A stretch of DNA of 49,945 bases from assembly GCA_029287615.1 (NCBI GenBank), contig JARFQV010000148.1, positions 1 through 49,945 on the forward strand, in the 5' to 3' direction. The DNA comes from Pseudomonadota bacterium. Its GTDB lineage: Bacteria; Pseudomonadota; Gammaproteobacteria; UBA9214. Under the pieces are notes generated by a model. The model did not search any database. It saw only the letters and a program-made list of their open reading frames with translations, and was not told the origin of the DNA. Below, in pieces: positions 1-6,822 of the stretch. The translations under genes and the position numbers were made by a program. Positions within the stretch are counted from its first letter, which is position 1, and each line of letters starts with the position of its first letter.

Positions 1-2718
1 ATGCAACTCGGCAATCTCCCCGGGAAAGATCGCGTAATCGGTCTCTTGTATGAAGTCCTCCTGGGACAGGCCGACCAGTTCCTCGAAAGCCCGGTTGCAA
101 CCCAGATAAACACTTTCCTGGTTTTTGAAAAAAACCACATCCGGTAATGAATTCACCAGTGAAGAAAGCAGCGATTTTTCCCGTACCAGGCCCAGCTCGG
201 CTTCCTTTCTTGCCGTGATATCGGACACGGTGCCGCTGGTGCGATAGGCGCGTCCGGACGCATCTCTGAGGGATCTGGCACGGGCGCGAAACCAGCGGTA
301 TCGTCCCGTTCGGGTACGCATGCGGTATTCGATGTCATAAGGGACATCGCTTTCCAGATGAGCATTGAATGCGCCAACCGCGGCCTCGACATCCTCAGGA
401 TGGACGTGTTTACTCCAGGTATCCAGGGTGTTGGGTAATTCTCCCGGTGAATAGTCGAGTAACTCTACGAAGCGGGGTGAAAACCAGTTTTCCCGGGAAC
501 GCGCATCATATTCCCACAAGGCATCGCCACTGCCGCGTACCGCCAGTTCAAAGCGCTCCTGGCTCTCCTGCAGGGCAGCGAGGGCCTGCTTGCGCTCGGT
601 GATGTCGGTGTGTGTGCCAGCCAGGCGGATCACATTGCCGCTTGCATCCTTTACCGTGGTTCCCTTGCTCAGAATCCAGCGCCAGCTGCCGTCCTTGTGC
701 CGCATGCGAAACTCGGTTTCGTAGCTGTTTTTTTCTCCCTTCAGGCAGGGAGTCACCTCGGTTTCCACAGCACCGGCAAGGTCGTCGGGATGGATCCTTT
801 TTGACCACTCCTCAAGCCGATCGGGGAATTCATCCGGCCGGTAACCGAGCATCTCCTTGTAACGTGGCGAGTAATAGACCTCGCCCGTGGCCGGATCCCA
901 GTCCCAGATTCCCTCATCGGCCGCTCGTATTACCAGCGCATAACGTTCCTCGCTTTTGCGCAGTGCCTCTTCGGCCTTGATACGATCCGTGATATCAAAG
1001 ATCGTACCATCCAGATACTGGGGCTCACCGTCCTCCCTGTAGACGGCCTGTCCCTTTGCGTAGACACTGCGGATTTCTCCGGCCGAATTGATAATACGAT
1101 ACTCATTGCTGTAGGAACGTCTTTCAGCAATCGCTTCGGCGGTATTACCGGAGATCCGCTCGATGTCTTCGGAATACATGAAATCGCCAAATCTTCTCAC
1201 CGGATTCTCGCCCAGAAAATCGCTGGCGGGGTATCCGCTCAGGGTCTCGATCTCGTCACTGATAAATATCATGGTCCATGGGTGCGATGGCAGACACCGA
1301 TAGACGGTGCCGGGTATATTGGCGACGAGTGTGCGGAACTGTTCCTCGCTTTTGTGCAGCGCCTGTCCGGCTTTCTGCCGCTCGGTCAGATCATGCCAGA
1401 CCACCAGTAATACGGTTTTTCCATCCAGTTCGATTGGTGTCAGGGTAACCTCCACCGGAAACTCCTCACCGCCCTTCCTGTGATGGACCCAATCGAAACG
1501 GTGACTGCCCCGGGTAAGGGCGATAGCGATCATGGACTCCGCCTTGTCCCGCGAGGGTTCACCATCCGGCTGATACTCCGGAGAAAGCTCACCGGGGTGT
1601 CTGGCCAGCAGGTCTTCCTTGTCGCTGTAGCCGAGCAGATTGACCGCCGCCTGGTTGCAGTCTGCAAAGCGGTCGCCATCCAGGATCAGATAGGGATCGG
1701 CGGATGCATCAAAGAGTACACTGAATCGGTCCACACTTGCCTTGAGGGCCGCGGTGCTCTCGCGTACCCGCCTGGCAATGGTACGGTTTCGATTCAGAAG
1801 GAAGGCGATAAACAGCGTGACAAAACCGGTTGCGCCGATACCGGACCAGAGGCTGTAGTCGGCAAGCTCAACATCGGGTCCGTCCGCGAAATCCCGACTG
1901 AAGTCCCAGGTCAGGGAGAGGTCTGCCCCGGCACTCACGGTACGGGTGGACGAGGAATACAATGCGTCGCGGGCAACCTCGCCGAATACAGGTATCTCCG
2001 GTCCGGGTCCCTCGCTCGTGGGGAAACGCCCGTTGATTCTGAGGCTGACTCCCCGTGGCCTGTGGATCTCGAACAACCCGCCAACCAGGGCATCGTAGTT
2101 CATCAAACCCACGATCATCAGCTCACCCTGCCTGTCCGAGATGGCCAGGGTTACGGGGGAATAGCGCACCCCGGAATCCATGCTGAGGGGACGGCCCAGA
2201 ACGGTCTGTCCCGGCTGGTCCGCTGCAACCTCGAGGGCCTCGATGATTGCCGGAAATGCGAATAGCGACACACCGGGGGAAAGTATACCCAGGGTATTGG
2301 TAGAAAACTCAACATCCCACCGCTCCCCCGCATCATCCTTGACCGGCCTCACGATCGCCATCGTATCGATGAACAGGGCAGTAGCGCGAGCCTCCAGTGA
2401 GTCGATTGCATCGAGGAATTCGTTTTCGGTGACGATTATCGAGTTTTCGAACAGGATTGCTATGCCTGACAGTGGTGCGTAGCTCTCTTCCAGCCAGGAG
2501 AGAACCGTACCGGAGAGCCACTGCTCGGACTGTGAGGCCTCTGCTTTCCAGACCTCGTACGCATCGGTCCGGAATCTCTCGCTCAGGGTGTATGAGCCGC
2601 CGGCACCCAGGATTGCGATTACCAGGAGCAGGAGCCATCCCCACCCCAGGTCTCTTCGCAGAAGGTTTGCCGCACGGTGGTCTGGATGAGCGGCTTTCCC
2701 GGCTTCGTCGTTCACCAT
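1..2718 (-). CDS. Membrane-bound multi-PAS sensor protein (partial, C-terminus outside window)
   Basis: The reading frame is open from an ATG at 2718 to base 1 (906 codons) without a stop, so the C-terminal output domain (GGDEF, EAL or histidine kinase) is not visible. A hydrophobic helix lies near residues 25-45 and a second near 289-310. The roughly 240-residue segment between them would be periplasmic and vaguely resembles a CHASE sensory domain. The cytoplasmic part carries five consecutive PAS/PAC units, starting near residues 333, 456, 588, 718 and 846. Units 2-4 open with SEEQF, SEERY and SQERF, and PAC ends such as GTIFDITDR, GTHTDITERK and GTVSDITARK close them. The start codon overlaps the stop of the upstream TorT-like gene (ATGGTGA), so the two are translationally coupled. 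I infer a ligand-sensing pair in which the binding protein informs this receptor. The family is certain to PAS sensor level; the output is unknown. Confidence 0.85.
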   Translation of the reverse strand, partial: MVNDEAGKAAHPDHRAANLLRRDLGWGWLLLLVIAILGAGGSYTLSERFRTDAYEVWKAEASQSEQWLSGTVLSWLEESYAPLSGIAILFENSIIVTENEFLDAIDSLEARATALFIDTMAIVRPVKDDAGERWDVEFSTNTLGILSPGVSLFAFPAIIEALEVAADQPGQTVLGRPLSMDSGVRYSPVTLAISDRQGELMIVGLMNYDALVGGLFEIHRPRGVSLRINGRFPTSEGPGPEIPVFGEVARDALYSSSTRTVSAGADLSLTWDFSRDFADGPDVELADYSLWSGIGATGFVTLFIAFLLNRNRTIARRVRESTAALKASVDRFSVLFDASADPYLILDGDRFADCNQAAVNLLGYSDKEDLLARHPGELSPEYQPDGEPSRDKAESMIAIALTRGSHRFDWVHHRKGGEEFPVEVTLTPIELDGKTVLLVVWHDLTERQKAGQALHKSEEQFRTLVANIPGTVYRCLPSHPWTMIFISDEIETLSGYPASDFLGENPVRRFGDFMYSEDIERISGNTAEAIAERRSYSNEYRIINSAGEIRSVYAKGQAVYREDGEPQYLDGTIFDITDRIKAEEALRKSEERYALVIRAADEGIWDWDPATGEVYYSPRYKEMLGYRPDEFPDRLEEWSKRIHPDDLAGAVETEVTPCLKGEKNSYETEFRMRHKDGSWRWILSKGTTVKDASGNVIRLAGTHTDITERKQALAALQESQERFELAVRGSGDALWEYDARSRENWFSPRFVELLDYSPGELPNTLDTWSKHVHPEDVEAAVGAFNAHLESDVPYDIEYRMRTRTGRYRWFRARARSLRDASGRAYRTSGTVSDITARKEAELGLVREKSLLSSLVNSLPDVVFFKNQESVYLGCNRAFEELVGLSQEDFIQETDYAIFPGEIAELH

Positions 2719-3782
2719 TTATTCACGCTGAAAATCGGGCGGAATCCACGTGGCGGGAGTGATGTGGAGACGTCGAATTCCCGGATATTGCCGTGGTCGA
2801 TCACAACCGGACTGGGCGCTACGTGCCTAGGGAAGGGTTTCCCCTCCAGGGCATGAACGATCTGATCCATAGCGATGCGGGCAAGGATCGCCTGACGATC
2901 GGTAGGCGCCGCCACGATCTGCCCACGGCCGATACCGCGGTGCACCCCGGGGCTGTAGTAGTAAGCCACCACGCTGACCTGTTCCGTCAGGCCATGTCTG
3001 CGCAGAATGGGTACCGCTGCCTCTGCGGTGACCGCCGTGCCGACGATATAGTCCAGATCCGGATGCGCATCGATCGCCTGTTCCACCAGCCTGCCCTGGG
3101 CGGCGAGGCCGGTATCGCCCTCGGCTGCGGTAACGATCCGGATGGAACTGTTCTCGATACCTGCGCGAAAACCCGTATCTCCTGCCGATACCCAGGCTGC
3201 ACCGGACGGACCCGGGAACCAGGCTACCCGCACCATCCCGGTCTCGCCCTTGTGCAGCTCACGAAGGTAGTGTGCCGTCTGGTTGCCCATGTCCCAGAAG
3301 TCAGCTGCCGCCCGTGCGGTAATGCCAGGCGCGGAGAGGCCATTGATCAGGTCGATGACGGGTTTGCCTTGATTCGTGTAACGCTCGACCAGGTCGTTAA
3401 GACCGTCGGCCGAGATGGCACTGACGACAAGCCCGTCGGCATCCCGGTCCATGCATTCCGTGATCTGTTTGCGCTGGTTTTGCAGATTGGAATAGCCACC
3501 CGCCTCATAAAGATTCATACCCACACCCAGCCGCCTGGCCTCGTCGAATAGCCCGTAATTGACTGCGATCCAGTAGTCATCCTTCAGATGGGGAATCGAT
3601 ACGCAGATACGCCAGGGCCTGGAAGCACTGTCCAGTGCATCATAGATGCCGGTACGGCGCATCCGGTCACTGTTGAAGGGCGGATCCCATACCTCTACCT
3701 CGATCGGATGCCATGACTTGCCGGCATGGACTGACAGGGCGAACAGCAGGATAAAAGGGCTTAGAAGGAGGGATAATCTCAT
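2712..3782 (-). CDS. TorT-like periplasmic substrate-binding protein
   Basis: 356 residues from the ATG at 3782, which directly gives a signal peptide (MRLSLLLSPFILLFALSVHA) with likely cleavage after residue 20. Upstream in-frame codons add 45 non-signal-like residues, so I reject them. The body is a type 1 periplasmic binding fold resembling TorT, the periplasmic partner of the TorS sensor in trimethylamine-N-oxide signalling; the length is close to TorT (about 340). Visible family-like stretches are PWRICVSIPHLKDDYW near the start of the mature protein and an ADGLVVSAIS segment typical of the PBP1 sugar-binding fold. The downstream gene is a multi-PAS membrane sensor overlapping it by three bases, not a recognisable TorS, so the ligand should not be assumed to be TMAO. 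It lies 49 bases downstream of truD on the same strand and may be read from the truD promoter. Confidence 0.8.
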   Translation of the reverse strand: MRLSLLLSPFILLFALSVHAGKSWHPIEVEVWDPPFNSDRMRRTGIYDALDSASRPWRICVSIPHLKDDYWIAVNYGLFDEARRLGVGMNLYEAGGYSNLQNQRKQITECMDRDADGLVVSAISADGLNDLVERYTNQGKPVIDLINGLSAPGITARAAADFWDMGNQTAHYLRELHKGETGMVRVAWFPGPSGAAWVSAGDTGFRAGIENSSIRIVTAAEGDTGLAAQGRLVEQAIDAHPDLDYIVGTAVTAEAAVPILRRHGLTEQVSVVAYYYSPGVHRGIGRGQIVAAPTDRQAILARIAMDQIVHALEGKPFPRHVAPSPVVIDHGNIREFDVSTSLPPRGFRPIFSVNKW

Positions 3783-3831
3783 GATGGAATGTATCACTTT
3801 ACACAGGTCGACCGGATTCCGAAAGGGATAC

Positions 3832-4866
3832 CTACTCGATGATTTCCCGTAACACGGCCGTTGCATAGGCGCCGGGCGGCAATTCGAATGCGAGCTCAAG
3901 GCTCCCGGTACCTTCAAGGGACCACTCCAGGTCGCGCACCCGGACTCTCAGGGCGCGGCGGTCCTGTTTGAGTCCCGCCTGTTCCAGCCCTTTTCGCCAC
4001 TGATCGTAAGGCGCCAGCTCCCGGGTCTCAAGCCGGAGGCAATCTCCGCTGACCGGCGGTGCGCCCTTCCCCCACAGCGGACCGGTTGCATGGACATCCA
4101 TCATCTGCATCCGCTCCCCGAGTTCAGGCCCGTTATCCGTGACCGCAAACCAGCTGCGGCTGCCGTCGAGTTGCAGGACATCGCCATCTATCACCCGGTC
4201 CCAGCTGCCATCGGCTACCCGCCGGTTGAGGACCTGATTGAACAGCCTGGAACGGGCCGCGGACAGGTAAAGCCCGCGCTGGTGTCTGCTGATACGACCG
4301 GCTTCCTTTCGGAACATCGCACCGGCTGCAACCAGATTGCTCCCGTTATGTCCGAATCGCTGCGGACCATAGTAATTCGGTATCCCCCGCAATCGCAGGG
4401 TGTCAAACAACGCTGGCAACTGATCCATATTCCCGTCCAGGTTGCGGATACGTATCTTGAATCGGTTTCCCCTCAGGCCACCGCGCCGCAGTTTCCGGCT
4501 GTGGCGACGAACCTGCAGGATGGTGAACTCCCCGCCTTCAATCGCCTGCCAGTCAGGCCCGGCGCGACCGGGAAGATGTACCGAAAACCACTGTTCGGTG
4601 ATGGCCTGGCGATCCTTCAGTCCCGCATAGCCAACCTGCCGGGGTGAGACACCGGCATGACGTGCAAGCTGGCGGGCCAGCCATTCCGTGTTGGCATTGC
4701 GTTTGCGGATATGCAACCAGACATGCTCGCCTTCTCCACCGGGGCTGCATACCGGGATCTCGCAGACCTGGAAATCTTCCGGCTGTGTCCGTATCTTGCC
4801 GCAGCATAGCGGACCACCGTGGGCATGGGCCAGAGTATCGGTTGCGGATTCGGATAGCGGTTTCAC
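3832..4866 (-). CDS. truD: tRNA pseudouridine(13) synthase TruD
   Basis: 344 residues from a GTG start. TruD converts U13 of tRNA-Glu to pseudouridine. The catalytic motif GYAGLKDRQA places the nucleophilic aspartate at residue 85, and the second family signature NYYGPQRFGHNGSNL is present. The N-terminus aligns with the E. coli protein from its HGKPQGTG...PEDF segment (here HGGPLCCGKIRTQPEDF), which supports the GTG at 4866. No Shine-Dalgarno sequence precedes it; instead a TATAAT box ends 8 bases upstream. In most gammaproteobacteria truD directly follows ispF; here it is separated from ispF by about 4.6 kb of sugar-related genes, some in the opposite direction, so it needs its own promoter. 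Confidence 0.95.
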   Translation of the reverse strand: MKPLSESATDTLAHAHGGPLCCGKIRTQPEDFQVCEIPVCSPGGEGEHVWLHIRKRNANTEWLARQLARHAGVSPRQVGYAGLKDRQAITEQWFSVHLPGRAGPDWQAIEGGEFTILQVRRHSRKLRRGGLRGNRFKIRIRNLDGNMDQLPALFDTLRLRGIPNYYGPQRFGHNGSNLVAAGAMFRKEAGRISRHQRGLYLSAARSRLFNQVLNRRVADGSWDRVIDGDVLQLDGSRSWFAVTDNGPELGERMQMMDVHATGPLWGKGAPPVSGDCLRLETRELAPYDQWRKGLEQAGLKQDRRALRVRVRDLEWSLEGTGSLELAFELPPGAYATAVLREIIE

Positions 4867-6105: not shown

Positions 6106-6195
6106 TTCTCTATTAATACCTAGTTTATCCCTGTTTTTTCATACCGGTTTTCCGGGTAGTATTATCCGTTCATTTGAACACAACGAGAGGTCTAC

Positions 6196-6822
6196 ATGAG
6201 TGATGCACTGAATTATCTGGTTGCCGCGCGCCCTGAAGCCATCAAACCCTATTTCACCTTCCTGAAAGAGGCTGGCACGCACCTGGATGAACGTACCCGG
6301 GACCTGATTTCGGTGATTACCAAGGTTGATTCCCAGACCGAAGCCGGGTTTCGGCAGTATCTCACCAGGGCGCTGAGAAACGGCGCAAGCGCCAACGAGG
6401 TGCTGGACGCCCTGCTGATGGCTTTTCCTACATTGGGTCTGGCGAAAATCGTCTGGGCAGTCGATATCCTGCTGGACATGGATATCCCGGATTTTCGTCC
6501 GGAGAACCTGTTTGCGGAACCGGTCTGGCACAAGGTGGGACCGGTCGATGATCTGCCCTCCGGCGAGATCAGCTACCGGGATTGTGACGGACGCAGTCTT
6601 TTCATCTACCGGGAAGAGGATACCCTGCGCGTCTATGACAGCCGTTGTCCGCACCAGGTAACGAATATCCCGCACCTTGCGCTGGAGGGTACCCGTCTGA
6701 CCTGTCCCAAGCACCATTGGGCCTTCGACGTATCCACCGGTGAATGCGTGGAGACCGGCAACCGGCCACTGAACGCGTTCGAACACAAGGTCGAGGACGG
6801 TTCATTGCTGGTGTACTGGTAG
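6196..6822 (+). CDS. Carboxymuconolactone decarboxylase-like / Rieske [2Fe-2S] two-domain protein
   Basis: 208 residues, ATG preceded by GAGAGGT. Residues 1 to about 95 form an all-helical AhpD/CMD-like domain. It contains no cysteine at all, so the CxxC redox pair of AhpD-type peroxidase partners is absent. Residues about 110-208 form a Rieske-type ferredoxin domain with cluster ligands C151-P-H153 and C170-P-K-H173 (CxH...CxxH) and a C-terminal beta segment (FDVSTGECVETGNRPL) typical of Rieske ferredoxins in oxygenase systems. The substrate is unknown; the fusion suggests that electrons are delivered to, or sensed by, the CMD domain. It lies downstream of glk and converges on the glucosidase with 12 bases between stops, leaving no room for a hairpin terminator. 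Confidence 0.75.
   Translation: MSDALNYLVAARPEAIKPYFTFLKEAGTHLDERTRDLISVITKVDSQTEAGFRQYLTRALRNGASANEVLDALLMAFPTLGLAKIVWAVDILLDMDIPDFRPENLFAEPVWHKVGPVDDLPSGEISYRDCDGRSLFIYREEDTLRVYDSRCPHQVTNIPHLALEGTRLTCPKHHWAFDVSTGECVETGNRPLNAFEHKVEDGSLLVYW

What the first reader, a model, noticed from the sequence alone, without database searches (positions are those of the whole stretch)
6196..6822. CMD domain fused to a Rieske ferredoxin domain, with no redox cysteines in the CMD part
The N-terminal AhpD/carboxymuconolactone-type domain lacks the CxxC pair, while the C-terminal domain has a complete CxH...CxxH [2Fe-2S] site. This combination is unusual and its reaction cannot be deduced. Linkage to glk and a glucosidase gives no obvious need for a Rieske cluster.
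Basis: partly seen in the sequence, partly recalled or inferred. Interest (0 to 1): 0.5.

Follow-up and report, generated by a model that had tools for sequence, protein, structure and literature searches.

The report
Rieske–CMD fusion in sulfur-oxidizing bacteria
This gene makes a conserved two-part redox protein, an iron-sulfur electron carrier joined to a cysteine-free enzyme-like domain, and the branch of the family it belongs to is found almost only in bacteria that oxidize sulfur with a reverse-running sulfite reductase.

Summary
Window 6196-6822 (+) encodes 208 aa with an N-terminal CMD domain (PF02627, over its cut-off) and a C-terminal Rieske domain (PF00355) with an intact CxH...CxxH site. 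It is a fixed architecture: 73 of 73 aligned relatives carry both domains. The thiols and histidine of AhpD-type CMD proteins are replaced by near-invariant T48, G51, Y55. The CMD half is better conserved than the Rieske half, so it is under constraint, not decayed.
The glk and glycosidase neighbours are accidental (0 of 116 relatives' loci). In the window's subfamily the gene goes with reverse dissimilatory sulfite reductase: dsrA in 10 of 10 such genomes of a class sample, against 50 of 167 without the gene. In 13 of 116 loci it lies in or beside the dsr locus, in 10 beside soxB. A basal branch (8 genomes) has no dsrA, soxB or DrsE_2, so the core activity is not strictly sulfur-dependent.
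Best reading: a soluble Rieske ferredoxin on a thiol-less CMD scaffold or pocket, recruited as accessory electron carrier of rDsr sulfur oxidation. Partner and reaction are unproven. Ten searches of an open-access library found no description.
Side finding: a TauD-like oxygenase gene divergent from dsrA in 45 of 56 genomes.

The parts
6196..6822 (+). whole gene: 208-aa CMD-Rieske fusion protein
   Evidence: GAGAGG at 6185-6190 seen
6196..6507 (+). CMD-fold half, residues 1-104, six helices (Pfam CMD stretch is residues 26-92)
6337..6360 (+). T48..G51..Y55, the place of CxxC...H in AhpD-type CMD proteins; G51, Q54 and Y55 invariant
   Evidence: alignment to 1vke/2af7; conservation
6526..6756 (+). 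Rieske [2Fe-2S] domain (Pfam match, residues 111-187)
6646..6654 (+). C151-P-H153, first ligand pair
   Evidence: sequence; invariant in 73 rows
6703..6714 (+). C170-P-K-H173, second ligand pair; followed by invariant W175 and F177
   Evidence: sequence; aligned with CRAHLWTF of T4moC
6745..6747 (+). C184, an extra invariant cysteine of the Rieske half, role unknown
   Evidence: invariant in 73 rows

Best explanation
A soluble protein without a visible signal sequence, in which a Rieske [2Fe-2S] ferredoxin domain of the oxygenase-ferredoxin type (closest to the T4moC group) is held on a thiol-less CMD-fold domain that acts as oligomer scaffold, docking surface or ligand pocket. It carries single electrons; it is not an AhpD peroxidase and not a terminal Rieske oxygenase. 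In the window's subfamily it serves as an accessory electron carrier (or a small redox enzyme) of reverse dissimilatory sulfite reductase (rDsr) sulfur oxidation. Shown: the domain architecture, the predicted fold, the intact ligand set, strong constraint on the CMD half, co-occurrence with dsrA, and location in dsr/apr and sox loci of some lineages. Inferred: cluster binding, oligomerization, electron transfer, the sulfur role, and its partner (unknown).
For: Fold and domains. Ligands and new CMD set invariant. CMD half more alike than Rieske half in all five group comparisons, e.g. 0.75 v 0.61 within the subfamily, 0.50 v 0.29 to clade 2. Co-occurrence: dsrA (TIGR02064 over cut-off) in 45 of 50 genomes of the named collection and in all 17 clade-2 genomes examined; phylum sample: 40 of 43 carriers v 12 of 256 non-carriers; class sample, subfamily rows: 10 of 10 v 50 of 167. 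Linkage: dsrA within the fetched locus in 13 of 116, soxB in 10. Operons read: L070 dsrE-dsrB-dsrA / TauD-like-small ORFs-cysG-gene-...-dsrE2-tusA-qmoC-like-aprB-aprA; L052 dsrB-dsrA / small-Cas6like-tusA-dsrC-ORF-TauD-like-gene. The window's own genome has dsrA.
Against: Eight gamma genomes of the class sample carry the gene without dsrA, soxB or DrsE_2; they are the basal rows of clade 1, so rDsr cannot be the only context. Over all 18 carriers of the class sample the dsrA link is weak (10 of 18 v 50 of 167, p 0.035); the split into subfamily and basal rows was made after seeing it, and the branch (87/85) is not strongly supported. Most dsrA genomes of that sample (50 of 60) lack the gene, so it is not needed for rDsr. 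The own copy was not found near dsrA: dsrA lies on a 3,296-base contig. Phylum-sample counts are not corrected for descent. One subfamily genome of the 50 (G304) has no dsrA match of note.
Confidence: 0.42

Rival explanations
1. A general redox or repair protein whose job has nothing to do with sulfur; sulfur oxidizers and their relatives simply inherited or exchanged it, and its place near dsr and sox is incidental.
For: Eight carriers without dsrA, soxB or DrsE_2, with another context: a 159-aa membrane protein directly upstream in 6 loci (5 genomes) and a Kef-type antiporter nearby. Neighbours differ widely between lineages; many carriers in dsr genomes have no sulfur gene beside them.
Against: 0 of 8 basal v 10 of 10 subfamily genomes with dsrA; placement in the dsr locus in gamma and beta lineages.
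Confidence: 0.33
2. A true enzyme: the CMD half is a thiol-free active site (K43, T48, E49, Q54, Y55, R35, D71) that works on a small sulfur or organic acid ligand and uses the Rieske cluster as its built-in electron source or sink.
For: Near-invariance of this polar set in 73 rows and greater constraint on the CMD half; in CMD proteins this region is the active site (recalled).
Against: No ligand, no precedent found; invariance may serve packing or docking; no catalytic mechanism can be derived.
Confidence: 0.18
3. Electron donor to the TauD-like Fe(II) oxygenase encoded directly upstream in several dsr loci.
For: TauD-like ORF upstream, same strand, 37-112 bases away, in eight loci.
Against: The TauD-like gene follows dsrA, not this gene: present in 20 of 20 dsrA genomes without it and in 0 of 8 carriers without dsrA. 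Such oxygenases take electrons from 2-oxoglutarate and need no ferredoxin (recalled).
Confidence: 0.05

Closest known systems
T4moC, Rieske ferredoxin of toluene 4-monooxygenase (1vm9, 4p1c)
   Same: best sequence match of the Rieske half (53.8 bits with the family profile; VIA Z 13.4, rmsd 2.9, 99 aligned); same CxxHxWxF at the second loop
   Different: T4moC has no CMD domain and sits in an aromatic monooxygenase operon (recalled); here there is an N-terminal CMD domain and no such operon was recognized
Other oxygenase-type Rieske ferredoxins (naphthalene dioxygenase 2qpz, CarAc, BphA3)
   Same: fold, ligand set; 2qpz VIA Z 14.0, rmsd 3.4, 101 aligned
   Different: single-domain proteins; about 20-30% identity
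CMD-family proteins 2af7, 1vke, 3d7i, 7y4r (RclX), 5dik
   Same: CMD fold: 2af7_E Z 11.0, rmsd 4.5, 96 aligned; sequence profile hits
   Different: no Rieske domain; 1vke has CxxC and His, here T48, G51, Y55
Known rDsr accessory redox protein DsrL
   Same: accessory electron carrier of rDsrAB in sulfur oxidizers (abstract and passages of PMC7596348)
   Different: DsrL is a flavoprotein with [4Fe-4S] ferredoxin domains; that paper's main text has no occurrence of 'Rieske' or 'carboxymuconolactone'

Membership tests
Rieske ferredoxin (PF00355) | CxH ... CxxH ligand set | tested here: met
   C151 H153 C170 H173, invariant in 73 rows
Rieske ferredoxin (PF00355) | profile score over the curated cut-off and Rieske fold | tested here: met
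   53.6 bits v 20.3; model v Rieske ferredoxins Z 12-14
Rieske ferredoxin (PF00355) | bound [2Fe-2S] cluster | not testable with these tools
   needs purified protein
CMD family (PF02627) | profile score over the curated cut-off | tested here: met
   25.6 bits v 23; 73 of 73 members at E <= 0.001
AhpD-type thiol peroxidase | CxxC pair plus His and Glu in the CMD domain (recalled) | tested here: not met
   T48, G51, Y55 at the CxxC and His places, position 36 variable
gamma-carboxymuconolactone decarboxylase (PcaC) | conserved His of the active site (recalled) | tested here: not met
   Tyr in all 73 rows
gamma-carboxymuconolactone decarboxylase (PcaC) | place among protocatechuate pathway genes | tested here: inconclusive
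   no pca gene was recognized among the recurrent neighbour clusters, but pca models were not searched
Rieske non-heme iron oxygenase | C-terminal catalytic iron domain after the Rieske domain | tested here: not met
   protein ends at residue 208, right after the Rieske fold
rDsr sulfur oxidation component | occurs in genomes with dsrA | tested here: met
   window subfamily: 10 of 10 in the class sample, own genome included; not so for the basal branch, 0 of 8
rDsr sulfur oxidation component | encoded in the dsr locus | tested here: inconclusive
   13 of 116 loci; not seen near dsrA for the window copy
rDsr sulfur oxidation component | required for sulfur oxidation | not testable with these tools
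   needs a mutant; 50 of 60 dsrA genomes of the class sample lack the gene, so not universal

The most novel reading that the evidence does not exclude
An overlooked redox component of the reverse Dsr pathway: a CMD domain that lost its thiols and histidine, gained a new invariant pocket, and works with a covalently attached Rieske cluster on a sulfur intermediate or as electron outlet of rDsr, in gamma-, beta- and some alphaproteobacterial sulfur oxidizers.
Probability: 0.27. Interest if true: 0.72.

Novelty: new variant of a known kind. Interest (0 to 1): 0.5.

Why it matters
Electron routes around rDsr are not fully worked out, and the genes that surround dsrAB in uncultured sediment sulfur oxidizers are mostly judged by the known Dsr set. 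If this protein carries electrons in that pathway, it adds a new type of carrier and a marker for a branch of sulfur oxidizers. It also shows a CMD domain kept under strong constraint after losing its catalytic thiols, which makes a clear biochemical question. If not, it is still a defined, widespread and unnamed Rieske family.

Tried and rejected
Autotrophy: phosphoribulokinase lies beside the gene in two arrangements, but RuBisCO (PF00016) is in 38 of 70 carriers, 0 of 17 clade-2 carriers and not in the own genome, against 90 of 185 in the class sample. Rejected.

SoxB as the common factor: among carriers without dsrA 2 of 13 have SoxB over the cut-off, among chosen non-carriers without dsrA 15 of 57. 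DrsE_2 in the same sets: 4 of 13 (none of the 8 basal gamma genomes) v 18 of 57. The 57 controls were picked from those printed, not at random. Rejected as general link.

glk/GH63-like linkage: 0 of 116 loci. Ferric-reductase-like neighbour: 2 clade-2 loci only. GMP synthase: 3 clade-2 loci. Plasmid-borne copy: 29 of 72,556 records match, none with one place covering 80% of the protein; the 20 listed rows lie on the Rieske half, two or three beginning somewhat before it. PcaC or AhpD function: see Membership tests. Early neighbour tables contained antisense ORFs and were replaced.

Not shown by the structure searches: no full-length two-domain match appeared among the printed rows; this does not prove that none exists. 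Distances inside the models (cluster to CMD pocket, C184 to cluster) could not be measured. Occurrence outside the phylum was not tested beyond (80 best of 139 kept).

Papers: ten searches of one open-access library; listings only, except term look-ups in PMC11406059 (0 hits), PMC7596348 (abstract and passages) and PMC3397948 (0 hits). No description of this protein was found there; subscription papers were not searched.

Full report
WHAT IS THERE. The ORF at 6196-6822 (+) starts with ATG after GAGAGG and encodes 208 residues. Pfam finds CMD (25.6 bits, cut-off 23, residues 26-92) and Rieske (53.6 bits, cut-off 20.3, residues 111-187). No NCBIfam model reaches its cut-off for this protein. The search of the own genome places both domains in the same open frame. 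AlphaFold2 with 73 sequences gives pLDDT 92.4, pTM 0.78: six helices, then a Rieske beta fold. VIA rows for the Rieske half: 2qpz Z 14.0, rmsd 3.4, 101 aligned; 1vm9 Z 13.4, rmsd 2.9, 99 aligned. The CMD half predicted alone (pLDDT 93.9) matches CMD-family chains first: 2af7_E Z 11.0, rmsd 4.5, 96 aligned; 3d7i_A Z 10.6, rmsd 3.7, 94 aligned; 1p8c_B Z 10.4, rmsd 3.9, 99 aligned; the first row of another kind has Z 7.5. Foldseek alone gave E 5e-3 at best for that half, and helical domains score high easily, so the CMD assignment rests mainly on sequence.

THE FAMILY. One scan of genome contigs gave 139 relatives, the best 80 kept, 62-85% identical. A phylum sample of 299 genomes added a second clade at about 36-43% identity in another class or classes of the phylum. 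All 73 rows of a thinned alignment match both domain models. Invariant in all 73, among others: R12, D31, R35, K43, G51, Q54, Y55, E68, D71, P78, G81 in the CMD half; C151, H153, C170, H173, W175, F177, C184 in the Rieske half. The CMD half is the more conserved half in every comparison: 0.75 v 0.61 within the window's subfamily, 0.65 v 0.45 within the basal rows, 0.82 v 0.54 within clade 2, 0.65 v 0.50 and 0.50 v 0.29 between groups.

THE CMD SITE. HMMER aligns T48 and G51 to the cysteines and Y55 to the histidine of 1vke; the Glu position (36) is variable. 2af7 also has no CxxC at that place, so missing thiols alone are not remarkable; a fixed Thr/Gly/Tyr/Lys/Gln set in their stead is. The Rieske half aligns best with T4moC, sharing CxxHxWxF.

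NEIGHBOURS. glk, the GH63-like protein, TruD and the TorT-like protein occur in none of 116 relatives' loci (the 116 appear to include two genomes twice, L064/L128 and L038/L130, judged by equal contig lengths). Recurrent neighbours: (a) the dsr locus, dsrA found in 13 of 116 loci. L070 (Woeseiaceae): dsrE, dsrB, dsrA on one strand; TauD-like, small ORFs, cysG and the gene on the other; then dsrE2, tusA, a qmoC-like gene, aprB, aprA. L052: dsrB, dsrA; then small ORF, Cas6/Cmx6-like, TusA, DsrC, a 203-aa ORF, TauD-like and the gene. L131: dsrA and the gene about 4.6 kb apart. (b) soxA-soxB-phosphoribulokinase-HD-GYP-gene in Acidiferrobacterales and relatives (soxB in 10 loci). (c) response regulator-gene-phosphoribulokinase in four beta-type loci. 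(d) in genomes without dsrA, a 159-aa membrane protein directly upstream (6 loci, 5 genomes). Many loci show none of these.

CO-OCCURRENCE. dsrA (TIGR02064 over the cut-off): 65 of 70 carrier genomes, namely 45 of 50 from the named collection, 17 of 17 clade-2 genomes, 3 of 3 others including the window's own. Of the five below the cut-off, G299 has a partial match (252.8 bits) and G347 a contig-edge fragment plus a dsrB-like match; G304, G316 and G333 have no dsrA, the last two belonging to the basal rows (L038, L064). Class sample of 185: 60 with dsrA, 18 carriers, overlap 10; p 0.035. Phylum sample of 299: 43 carriers, 52 with dsrA at E <= 1e-60, overlap 40; p 2.6e-35, uncorrected for descent and driven by clade 2.

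THE SPLIT. In the family tree the 8 gamma rows from dsrA-free genomes are the basal rows of clade 1, and the other 53 rows, with the window, form one group (support 87/85; with L038 92/91; not starred). In the class sample this group is 10 of 10 with dsrA, the basal rows 0 of 8, non-carriers 50 of 167; 10/10 v 50/167 gives p 1.2e-5, a comparison made after seeing the data. One of the ten, G414, is a half-length hit (query 1-105) and is not a row of the tree; I counted it in the subfamily by its 65% identity. Fewest changes of dsrA state on the tree: 5, for 48 positive and 11 negative rows, 14 rows unlabelled. The basal genomes also lack SoxB and DrsE_2.

MECHANISM. Shown: two domains, ligand set, fold prediction, constraint. 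From family knowledge (recalled): CMD proteins form trimers or hexamers with the active site at subunit borders, and Rieske ferredoxins carry one electron between a reductase and an oxygenase. Inferred: an oligomer with Rieske domains displayed around a thiol-free CMD core, passing electrons to or from a cytoplasmic partner, in the window's subfamily one connected with rDsr. No partner is proven; DsrL, AprBA and the TauD-like protein are candidates, the last weak because it follows dsrA and not this gene.

KNOWN OR NEW. The domains are known; no NCBIfam model reaches its cut-off for the fusion and no paper on it surfaced in ten searches of a library that lacks most subscription journals. I rate it a new variant of a known kind.

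SIDE FINDING. The TauD-like ORF is present in 36 of 36 clade-1 carriers with dsrA, 20 of 20 non-carriers with dsrA, 4 of 6 clade-2 carriers, 0 of 8 carriers without dsrA and 1 of 9 non-carriers without dsrA; where it lies within 6 kb of dsrA in the first two groups (31 and 14 genomes) it is always divergent.

Noticed in passing
G000:C193:1626-2492 (+) beside dsrA C193:21-1100 (-); L052:5074-5964; many genomes: A TauD/gamma-butyrobetaine-dioxygenase-like ORF tracks dsrA: present in 56 of 56 examined genomes with dsrA outside clade 2, in 1 of 17 without, and divergent from dsrA in 45 of 56. Its role in sulfur oxidation is unknown; one paper search found nothing.
   Followed up: partly
L052:2879-3469 (+), L143:2769-3293 (+, own genome), also L072, L074, L075, L077, L145, L146: A protein family whose L052 member is over the cut-off of TIGR02807 (Cas6/Cmx6, CRISPR type I-MYXAN) sits in the operon divergent from dsrA, in L052 between a small ORF, TusA and DsrC; no other cas gene was recognized there. 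The model name is probably misleading.
   Followed up: partly
L070:4332-4577 and 12 more loci; L143:2535-2726 and 7 more: Two families of small proteins (about 65-82 aa) recur in the operon divergent from dsrA; no NCBIfam match for the first, the second was not searched.
   Followed up: no
L128:8514-8990, L124, L125, L126, L127: A 159-aa protein with an N-terminal hydrophobic stretch lies directly upstream of the fusion gene in carriers without dsrA (6 loci, 5 genomes); no NCBIfam match.
   Followed up: partly
G306, G308, G309, G310, G326, G034, G065 and others: Several genomes hold two different dsrA genes over the cut-off.
   Followed up: no
G000: The window's genome (91.66% complete) has dsrA but no RuBisCO large subunit match, hinting at a non-autotrophic sulfur oxidizer or a missing piece.
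   Followed up: no
window 2712-3917 (-): TorT-like periplasmic binding protein (NF008185, 357.9 bits over cut-off 200); TorS and a TMAO reductase were not looked for.
   Followed up: no
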